A DNA stretch of 64,000 nt from Persicimonas caeni. Its GTDB lineage: Bacteria > Myxococcota_A > Bradymonadia > Bradymonadales > Bradymonadaceae. Both the position numbers and the translations under genes were made by a program. This document shows, piece by piece, positions 37,141-44,289 of this stretch. The stretch covers positions 5,669,074 through 5,733,073 of the forward strand of contig NZ_CP041186.1 in NCBI RefSeq assembly GCF_006517175.1, read 5' to 3'. How positions within the stretch are numbered: the first letter of the stretch is position 1; the number at the start of each line of letters is the position of its first letter. Below the pieces are notes generated by a model. It had not been told where the DNA came from. It worked only from the letters and a program-made list of their open reading frames with translations, and searched no databases.

Positions 37141-37809
37141 TCACTGAATGAACATCGCGTCGCCCAGATAAGCGATGTCATCGACCTCCAACACGCCGGT
37201 GGTCTCGGGTTGTAGCGCTGCGCGCAGCGCCGCCATGGCGACCTTCTCGCGGCGGAGGCCGGTGGTCTCTTCGGCCCACACGCGCACCGGCGGCAGCTCA
37301 CCGGCCGCAGTCCCCAACATCCCTGCGGCGCGACCGTCTTCATCGTGCACCAGCACCGGCCGAAGGATCGCCACGGCCATGTCGAGGCCCTGGAGCGACG
37401 CCTCCCCGTCGAGCTTCGACTGCAAAAAGCCGTGGGGCATCGCCGGCGGGACCTTGCCGGCGGACAACATGACGAATTTGGGCACGCCCGCCTGCTCGGC
37501 GGCCCGGGCGGCCTGCTGCACCGAATGGCGGTGCAGGCGCCTGTAGGTTTGCTCGTTGGCGGGATCTTCGGCGGCGATGCCCACGCTGTGAACCAAAGCC
37601 TCGCACCCGGCGAGATGCGCCGACCACGATTCGACGTCGCCTACGTCGGCGCTCACCCAGTCGACCCCCTCGACCCATGGTTCGTCGATGGGCGGGCGGC
37701 CTCCGCGCGACACACTGACCACGCGGTGACCCATAGCGACCGCGAGGCGACAAATCTCGGCGCCGATAAAACCACTGCCGCCGAGGACACACACCTTGAA
37801 CCGATCCAT
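37141..37809 (-). CDS. NAD(P)-binding SDR-like protein
   Basis: 222 aa; ATG 37809 with AAGGAG 5 nt upstream; the open frame to 37890 is not used. Rossmann fold opening VCVLGGSGFIGAEICRLAVA (GGSGFIG). The product resembles atypical SDRs such as NDUFA9-like or YwnB-like proteins: no Tyr-x-x-x-Lys pair is clear, with SAGKVPPAMPHGFLQSKLDGE in its place. A short hairpin (GCGGGC/GCCCGC, 37046-37060) lies 80 bp past the stop. The substrate is unknown. Confidence 0.75.
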   Translation of the reverse strand: MDRFKVCVLGGSGFIGAEICRLAVAMGHRVVSVSRGGRPPIDEPWVEGVDWVSADVGDVESWSAHLAGCEALVHSVGIAAEDPANEQTYRRLHRHSVQQAARAAEQAGVPKFVMLSAGKVPPAMPHGFLQSKLDGEASLQGLDMAVAILRPVLVHDEDGRAAGMLGTAAGELPPVRVWAEETTGLRREKVAMAALRAALQPETTGVLEVDDIAYLGDAMFIQ

Positions 37810-38034
37810 TGAAACTCCTTGTGGTGACGAACAATCAAGCGCGCCAACTCCGAATTCTTCATTGACGCGGCGCGGCGTCATTGGCCACACTTGGCCGTGG
37901 CGATGACCCGCAACTCATCTGCCTCAGCGCGACCGACACCCCCCTGCGGTTCGGTAGTACGACTGGGACGGAAGCATATGAATCACCCCGCCGAGTCGAC
38001 ACTGGCAGGTGGCACGGAAACCTAAGGCACATCC

Positions 38035-39432
38035 ATGGCCAAATATATCCCCATTGGAGATCCGATAAACGAATCGGAGCGAGACGGTATTCGGCAACTA
38101 CGCGATCAACTGCCCGATCACTATATTGTGATCGGCAATTTCGAGCTGCAGTTGCCCCGGCGCAAGAACACCCTCGAGTACGACGCGGTCGTGGTCGGGG
38201 AGTGGGGGCTTTATGCCGTCGAGATCCGCGGCTGGGACGGGACCATCCGTGGAGACATCCGCCGATGGGAGCTCGAATGGGGCCGCGTCGAAAACCCGTT
38301 TATTCGCATCGAGCGCAAAGCCAAGGCCTTGCGAGATCTGCTCGTGCGATCCGTGTCCGATTTTCCTGACGAGCTCTTTTGTGAGGCGGTCGTTTTTCTG
38401 ACCGGCGACGACGTCGACGTGCAGGTCAAAGACGAGCGCAACCGACGGCTGCTGTTGCCCGGTCAGCTCTACGACTTCTTCGTCGACCGCAAGCGCATGA
38501 TCCAGCGCGGCCCCGGCCCGCTGCTCGACGCGACCATGCGCAAGCGCATCGTCGACGCGATCAGCCCGCTGGCCAGCCCGCGATCGCCGCTTCCGGTGAT
38601 CCAGAACTTCGAGGTCGAGACCGAACTGGCCGCCGACACCGCGCCGTACCGCGAGTTTATCGGCCGCCACAAGCTGCTCCAGGCGCGCGGTAAAGTGCGC
38701 ATCAAGGCCTACTCCATCGATCCGCTGCTCCCCCGAGCCGAGCGCGAGGCCGAGTACAACCGGGCGGCGCGTGATATGGAGGCGCTGACGCAGCTCGAGG
38801 ACAACGCCTATGTGGCGCGTCCCTACGAGATGCTGCAGGACAAAGAGGACGAGCTGACCTTCTATCTGGTCAGCGAGTGGGTCGGGCCGACCACGCTGCG
38901 AAGCTATATCGAGCAGACCGACTACGACGCCCTCGACGCCTCGAAGCGCGAGGAGTTCGGTCGCTTTGCCAAGCACCTGCTCAAGGCGATCTCGTTCATG
39001 CACAGCCGCGACATCATCCACCGCAACTTGCATCCGGGGGTGATCTACCTGACCAACAGCGAAGAAGGCGTACCTCTGAAGATCGCCGACTTCGATTACG
39101 CGCGGGTAGCCAACCTGAAGTCGATCGCCGGCCAGATCAGCGATCTGGGCACCGAGGGATACGCGGCCCCCGAGCTTTGGATGGAGGATGGCTACGACTT
39201 TCGCGTCGACATCTTCTCGGCCGGGGTGATCCTGTACGAACTGTTCACCGGTCGGTACTTCTACGCCGATCTGCCCGAGATGCTGCGCCACGACGAGGTG
39301 TGGCAGGAAAAGCGCGAGCTTCTCGACGATCCCATCCTGCGATCGCTGCTCGACAAGATGGTCTCCTCCGATCCCGACGCGCGCAGTGTGGGGCTCCAAG
39401 AGGCCCTGGAGCACTTCGACGCGCAGGGTTGA
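38035..39432 (+). CDS. NERD-domain protein with pseudokinase-like kinase domain
   Basis: 465 aa; ATG 38035, with AAGG 7 nt upstream. Residues ~10-120 form a NERD (nuclease-related) domain: NTLEYDAVVVGEWGLYAVEIRGW keeps the D...E-x-R core. Residues ~215-460 are a Ser/Thr kinase fold: K224 in GKVRIKAY, the DIIHRNLHPGVIYL loop and IADFDYA (D352-F-D354). The catalytic HRD Asp is Asn331, DFG is DFD, and no glycine-rich loop is seen, so catalysis is doubtful. NERD-kinase proteins occur in defence and stress loci (PglW of BREX), but none of the other genes of those systems are here. Function inferred only. Confidence 0.8.
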   Translation: MAKYIPIGDPINESERDGIRQLRDQLPDHYIVIGNFELQLPRRKNTLEYDAVVVGEWGLYAVEIRGWDGTIRGDIRRWELEWGRVENPFIRIERKAKALRDLLVRSVSDFPDELFCEAVVFLTGDDVDVQVKDERNRRLLLPGQLYDFFVDRKRMIQRGPGPLLDATMRKRIVDAISPLASPRSPLPVIQNFEVETELAADTAPYREFIGRHKLLQARGKVRIKAYSIDPLLPRAEREAEYNRAARDMEALTQLEDNAYVARPYEMLQDKEDELTFYLVSEWVGPTTLRSYIEQTDYDALDASKREEFGRFAKHLLKAISFMHSRDIIHRNLHPGVIYLTNSEEGVPLKIADFDYARVANLKSIAGQISDLGTEGYAAPELWMEDGYDFRVDIFSAGVILYELFTGRYFYADLPEMLRHDEVWQEKRELLDDPILRSLLDKMVSSDPDARSVGLQEALEHFDAQG

Positions 39433-40068
39433 GCCGCGCGCGGACAAAATTTTGATTCCTTGGAATAGGGCGGGCGAAAAACCGTTTGACACAAAGGTGT
39501 AGTACTCTTACAGTTACTCGCCTTGATTCGGACGCGATCCAGGCACCATTGTATGTTGATGGCGTTCGAAAACTGAAGTGAGAAGAGCTCTTCACGAGTT
39601 GTTTGACAGAGCACCTGGCTGCCTCAACCGCGCCAGCCGGGTGTCACAAGGGGGCTACCCGCGGGTTCCGGCATCGCGACTTGTCAACTCGTCCACGATA
39701 TGTTCAAAGGTGGGCGCGTTTGCGATGGGCAGGAGCCTGCTTCCGTTGCAACCCGTGAGTTGCACGGCAACCGTAGGTAGCCTGCCGCGCGGGGATCCCA
39801 ATTACGATATGTTCGATCTCGAGTCGATGCAAATCGAAAATCTTCACAGTGCGCGCTCAATCCCCACTCAAGAAGCGGTCCCGGTCGCTCATCCAGCGTT
39901 CGTCTGGCGCCGGCCGCCTGTTGTGCCGTTAGGCCAGCCTGACAGGCCCCTCTGACGCGCGACCCAGCAACACAAGATCGATCACGCGGCTGACGCCACG
40001 GCCCCCGGCCTGGCGCTTGCCGCGCTACTGCAAGAGACATAGCTCAGCAGAACCCTTAAGGAGAGATG
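39433..40068 (+). promoter_or_regulatory. Non-coding rpoB upstream region with a sigma-70-like promoter
   Basis: About 636 bp without a convincing gene. TTGACA (39486-39491), 17 bp, TACAGT (39509-39514) form a good sigma-70-like promoter, so the rpoB leader would be roughly 550 nt. The 126-codon plus-strand frame at 39578-39955 lacks SD, composition or family evidence. The usual rplJ-rplL genes are not upstream. AAGGAG at 40058-40063 serves rpoB. No L10-leader or riboswitch core was recognised. Confidence 0.6.
39486..39514 (+). promoter_or_regulatory. Sigma-70-like promoter upstream of rpoBC
   Basis: TTGACA at 39486-39491 (perfect -35), a 17-bp spacer and TACAGT at 39509-39514 (four of six -10 matches). 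It lies 554 bp before the rpoB start, so transcription would begin near 39521. It is the best sigma-70 match noticed in the window. Confidence 0.6.

Positions 40069-44289
<4,221 letters not shown>

What the first reader, a model, noticed from the sequence alone, without database searches (positions are those of the whole stretch)
38035..39432. NERD domain fused to a kinase fold that lacks the catalytic aspartate
The HRD motif reads HRN (N331), the DFG motif is DFD, and there is no glycine-rich loop, while K224 persists. Together with a NERD nuclease-like domain this suggests a pseudokinase that regulates or targets the NERD half. NERD-kinases occur in phage-defence systems (PglW), but here it stands alone beside rpoBC. 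Function inference only.
Basis: partly seen in the sequence, partly recalled or inferred. Interest (0 to 1): 0.6.

Follow-up and report, generated by a model that had tools for sequence, protein, structure and literature searches.

The report
Stand-alone NERD–pseudokinase, conserved lineage core gene
A gene next to the RNA polymerase genes of a predatory bacterium (probably Persicimonas caeni) makes a nuclease-like domain joined to a dead protein kinase; it is the front part of known phage-defence proteins, without their active kinase, kept for a long time as an ordinary inherited gene of this bacterial family.

Summary
The 465-aa protein has a NERD domain (13-121) and a kinase fold (to 460) with HRN for HRD, DFD for DFG, no glycine loop, and K224 kept. 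It is not decay: 20 of 21 genomes of the family carry one copy, HRN is in 18 of 19 sequences (one HRK), K224 and D352 are invariant, dN/dS is about 0.05-0.23, and the gene tree follows rpoB. Its closest known relative is the N-terminal part of MAD6 (MADS defence) and, further off, PglW (BREX type 2). Those proteins carry NERD, the same kind of dead first kinase (HRN in MAD6), and then an active second kinase (HxDIKP). The window gene is only the first two parts. That NERD-pseudokinase-kinase layout is published, so the dead kinase is an inherited feature of the module. What seems new is the stand-alone form: a separate clade, vertically inherited, fixed beside rpoBC, opposite an SDR-like gene, with no defence genes around. 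The pseudokinase reading is supported. That it regulates the NERD half is plausible but untested, and defence is doubtful. In this species and Bradymonas the NERD lysine is arginine, so cleavage may be lost. New variant of a known kind.

The parts
38035..39432 (+). NERD-pseudokinase gene, 465 aa, ATG start
   Evidence: one-copy homologue in 20 of 21 family genomes
38071..38397 (+). NERD domain (aa 13-121)
   Evidence: Pfam PF08378, E 1.9e-14; model order helix-strand-strand-strand...helix-strand
38077..38079 (+). NERD E15
   Evidence: 19 of 19 family sequences; invariant in alignment with MAD6 and PglW
38182..38184 (+). NERD D50
   Evidence: 19 of 19; invariant
38221..38229 (+). NERD E63-x-R65 (E-x-K motif with Lys to Arg)
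   Evidence: K in 17 of 19, R only in window and L003; K in all MAD6/PglW rows aligned
38704..38706 (+). beta-3 lysine K224, kept
   Evidence: 20 of 20; MAD6 first kinase has R here
38740..39414 (+). kinase-like fold matched by Pfam Pkinase (aa 236-460)
39019..39027 (+). HRN (residues 329-331) in place of HRD
   Evidence: N in 18 of 19, K in one; HRN also in first kinase of MAD6
39088..39096 (+). DFD (residues 352-354) in place of DFG
   Evidence: D352 20 of 20; position 354 D or E in all
37141..37890 (-). divergent neighbour, SDR-like NAD(P)-binding protein, conserved partner
   Evidence: Pfam NAD_binding_10 4.1e-14; homologue beside the gene in all 17 fetched relatives where that side is on the contig
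39486..39514 (+). probable separate promoter of rpoB, TTGACA-17-TACAGT
   Evidence: best-scoring site with TTGACA in 13 of 15 family gaps, 12 of them 7-64 bp after the NERD-pseudokinase stop
40066..44289 (+). rpoB, next gene downstream
   Evidence: adjacency kept in window and 15 relatives

Best explanation
A stand-alone, vertically inherited NERD-pseudokinase. Shown by sequence: it matches the first two domains (NERD plus catalytically dead kinase) of MAD6/PglW-type defence proteins, without their active kinase and C-terminal parts; it is a separate clade, under purifying selection, and nearly universal in its family. Inferred: the dead kinase does not transfer phosphate but acts as a binding or switch domain, possibly still holding a nucleotide through K224 and D352, and it controls the PD-(D/E)XK-like NERD domain, which acts on nucleic acid. 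In most relatives NERD could still cut; in P. caeni and Bradymonas the Lys to Arg change suggests binding, or weak or no cutting. Its role is probably a resident chromosomal function, with the SDR-like neighbour as the likeliest partner, rather than a mobile defence module. rpoBC is probably a neighbour only, with its own promoter.
For: Domain and motif counts. Two-kinase layout of MAD6/PglW relatives, first dead, second HxDIKP. Best curated family match MAD6, aligned to positions 1-458 of a 612-position model, for all 18 members tested. Separate clade, 100/100 support. Gene tree matches rpoB tree in its supported groups. 20 of 21 genomes; the one absence is nested, so a loss. dN/dS 0.05-0.15 within a genus, 0.23 between G000 and G008. 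Synteny. Promoter after the gene.
Against: No direct evidence for any biochemical function. The structure model is weak (mean pLDDT 57), so the nucleotide pocket cannot be judged. The SDR link rests on adjacency, plus one genome where the gene is lost and the SDR is reduced; in G043 the SDR is short although the gene is present.
Confidence: 0.5

Rival explanations
1. A resident single-gene anti-phage or anti-plasmid effector: the pseudokinase senses an invader signal or is phosphorylated by another kinase, and releases the NERD nuclease.
For: All close relatives outside the family are defence proteins; NERD acidic residues are invariant.
Against: Fixed locus between rpsD and rpoB, vertical descent, no defence genes beside it; NERD lysine lost in this species. 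Defence genes are more often patchy and mobile.
Confidence: 0.25
2. An enzyme after all: the kinase fold uses K224, D352 and the extra acid at 354 for another transfer reaction (for example nucleotidyl transfer), as some HRD-less kinase folds do.
For: K224 and D352 invariant in 20 of 20 and residue 354 always acidic, whereas the first kinase of most MAD6/PglW rows has lost the DFG Asp. The precedent of HRD-less active folds is from general knowledge.
Against: Glycine loop, HRD Asp and catalytic-loop Asn are all missing.
Confidence: 0.1
3. A regulator of transcription tied to rpoBC, for example binding RNA polymerase or its transcript.
For: Adjacency to rpoBC kept in 16 of 18 assessable genomes.
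Against: A likely separate rpoB promoter follows the gene; in G117 and G048 rpoB is not adjacent but the SDR partner stays.
Confidence: 0.1
4. A recently decayed kinase or a truncated MAD6/PglW.
For: Length equals the MAD6 N-terminal part.
Against: Same length and motifs across the family, purifying selection, separate clade.
Confidence: 0.03

Closest known systems
MAD6 kinase of MADS (NCBIfam NF047741, PADLOC mad6)
   Same: NERD then a kinase fold with HRN; whole window protein aligns to model positions 1-458.
   Different: MAD6 proteins here are about 1,400 aa with a second kinase carrying HxDIKP and DFN, and sit in MADS-like gene clusters (L060). The first kinase has R at the K224 position, and GFD in five of six sequences.
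PglW of BREX type 2 (NF033442)
   Same: NERD, then inactive kinase fold (HRL/HRM/HRR).
   Different: About 1,400 aa with active second kinase whose K677 is needed for defence in Streptomyces (PMC4365076) and a DNA-binding C-terminal half (PMC12839542); only 23-25% identity.
NERD-kinase subset of DndF
   Same: NERD and tandem inactive and active kinase domains reported (PMC10853773).
   Different: Joined to the DndF core; not compared by sequence here.
NERD plus pseudokinase proteins mentioned by Kwon et al. 2019
   Same: This combination is cited second-hand in PMC9040797.
   Different: The original paper was not held, so I could not check whether this family is among them.

Membership tests
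MAD6 (MADS) | score above curated cut-off 460 bits | tested here: not met
   279.6 bits
MAD6 (MADS) | NERD plus HRN first kinase | tested here: met
MAD6 (MADS) | second, HxD-bearing kinase and C-terminal part | tested here: not met
   protein ends after the first kinase fold
MAD6 (MADS) | other MADS genes adjacent | tested here: not met
   neighbours are SDR-like, rpsD, queuosine mannosyltransferase, rpoB, rpoC
PglW (BREX type 2) | score above curated cut-off 990 bits and about 1,400 aa | tested here: not met
   111.7 bits, 465 aa
PglW (BREX type 2) | a PglW-like protein elsewhere in this genome | tested here: inconclusive
   none at E 1e-40, but that search rang in no control genome; only one NERD domain in the genome
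Pseudokinase | loss of a canonical catalytic residue, conserved in relatives | tested here: met
   HRD Asp and catalytic-loop Asn lost across the family
Pseudokinase | no phosphotransfer activity | not testable with these tools
   needs an assay
NERD, PD-(D/E)XK nuclease superfamily | NERD profile match | tested here: met
   1.9e-14, above cut-off
NERD, PD-(D/E)XK nuclease superfamily | acidic motif residues plus motif lysine | tested here: not met
   E15, D50, E63 kept; Lys is R65 in this species, K in 17 of 19 relatives
NERD, PD-(D/E)XK nuclease superfamily | nuclease activity | not testable with these tools
   needs an assay

The most novel reading that the evidence does not exclude
A defence-type NERD-pseudokinase module lives as a core chromosomal regulator of a whole bacterial family: a nucleotide-responsive dead kinase controlling a nucleic-acid-acting NERD domain, working with a divergent SDR-like protein and not with an active kinase of its own.
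Probability: 0.35. Interest if true: 0.6.

Novelty: new variant of a known kind. Interest (0 to 1): 0.45.

Why it matters
In PglW and MAD6 the role of the dead first kinase is unclear because it is buried in a 1,400-aa protein, and NERD nuclease activity had not been studied experimentally as of PMC9040797. Here nature offers NERD plus dead kinase alone, small, conserved and in culturable bacteria (P. caeni, B. sediminis), with natural K and R versions of the NERD motif in the family. That makes the question of what the pseudokinase does to NERD directly testable.

Tried and rejected
Recent decay: rejected by conservation, dN/dS and tree. Truncated MAD6 or PglW: rejected by separate clade and constant length. 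Phage origin: two viral-contig scans with the family found no relative; the MAD6 alignment found one MAD6, the PglW one none. Structure: single-sequence model poor (pLDDT 35); with three sequences better for NERD, poor for the kinase core (57). I gave the predictor only the window protein and relatives from the search for related loci, as its rule states. Foldseek hits are ordinary kinases with low TM-scores, taken only as weak support. No solved NERD relative by sequence. Other phyla could not be searched with the genome search. The genome-contig scan with the single protein found one relative.

Full report
Observation. ORF 38035-39432 (+) gives 465 aa. Pfam finds NERD at 13-121 (1.9e-14) and Pkinase at 236-460 (1.2e-27). 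The catalytic-loop Asn is also gone (V336).

Where it is. The window is positions 5669074-5733073 of an 8,047,206-base genome. Persicimonas caeni YN101 is reported as 8,047,306 bp and Bradymonas sediminis FA350 as 5,045,683 bp (PMC7188933); genome G008 has exactly the latter length. I therefore infer that the window is P. caeni or very near it (family f1, predatory Bradymonadales).

Conservation. A search of 379 phylum genomes found about 465-aa homologues only in family f1; other hits were in open frames of 961 aa or more, apart from L028 (460 aa), whose frame I take to be cut by the contig end. With the family profile 20 of 21 family genomes have one copy. In 19-20 aligned sequences K224, D352 and the acidic residue 354 are invariant and N331 is N in 18 of 19. 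dN/dS is 0.05-0.15 within one genus and 0.23 between the window genome and G008; rpoB is 0.02-0.04. The gene tree repeats the supported groups of the rpoB tree. The one genome without the gene, G087, is nested beside G043 in the rpoB tree, so this is a loss.

Relationship. The best curated family is MAD6, 279.6 bits over model positions 1-458 of 612, below the cut-off of 460; all 18 members tested match MAD6 and PglW. In the long relatives the same N-terminal stretch is followed by a second kinase fold with HRD/HCD-IKP, while the first has HRN (MAD6) or HRL/HRR/HRM/HRH (PglW-like). The literature already describes NERD, inactive kinase and active kinase in PglW and in some DndF (PMC12839542; PMC10853773), and K677 of the second kinase is needed in PglW (PMC4365076). 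A tree puts the family proteins, MAD6 and PglW in three fully supported groups. Direction of change, loss of the second kinase or an older short form, is open because the tree has no outside root.

Differences from MAD6. The family keeps K224 and the DFG Asp, where MAD6 first kinases have R, and mostly GFD. This leaves room for nucleotide binding, untested.

NERD. E15, D50 and E63 are invariant; the motif lysine is K in 17 of 19 but R in the window and G008. Cleavage by the P. caeni protein is therefore doubtful.

Neighbourhood. rpsD, SDR-like gene (opposite strand), this gene, rpoB, rpoC: rpoB adjacent in the window and 15 of 17 assessable relatives; the SDR-like gene is next to it in all 17 relatives where that side is on the contig, including G117 and G048 where rpoB is not adjacent. 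In G087 only a 179-aa, inverted SDR remnant is left. In a sister-family genome (G252) other genes precede rpoB. A TTGACA promoter lies after the gene in most relatives, so rpoBC is probably transcribed apart. No defence gene is adjacent.

Reading. Shown: conserved stand-alone NERD-pseudokinase, vertical, selected. Inferred: regulatory dead kinase acting on NERD, in a resident chromosomal role. Not shown: any activity. Verdict: real, conserved, a new variant of a known module; interest moderate.

Noticed in passing
window 39433-40065; loci L038-L042, L044-L046: rpoBC has a 250-550 nt leader behind a conserved TTGACA promoter. In eight relatives it holds a long hairpin (GGTTCCGCAT...CCAGC...GCTGG...GCGGAGCC) followed by five to seven T, with apparent compensating changes: it looks like a transcription attenuator. 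No Rfam match in the window; fold z-scores are modest (-0.5 to -4.0). The T run is not seen in the window.
   Followed up: partly
window 37141-37890 and homologues: The divergent SDR-like gene evolves fast (dN/dS about 0.2-0.35). Several relatives have lost the glycine-rich NAD motif or part of the protein: a possible pseudo-enzyme next to a pseudokinase.
   Followed up: partly
G000:C1:4810572-4810772: The strong ribosomal L7/L12 match lies about 0.9 Mb from rpoBC, so the usual rplJL-rpoBC link appears broken in this lineage.
   Followed up: no
G000 whole genome: 138 Pkinase matches in one 8-Mb genome, so many active kinases could act on the pseudokinase.
   Followed up: no
L094 (IMG/VR contig): A 1,383-aa MAD6 lies in a contig of the viral collection, with long open frames on both sides.
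   Followed up: no
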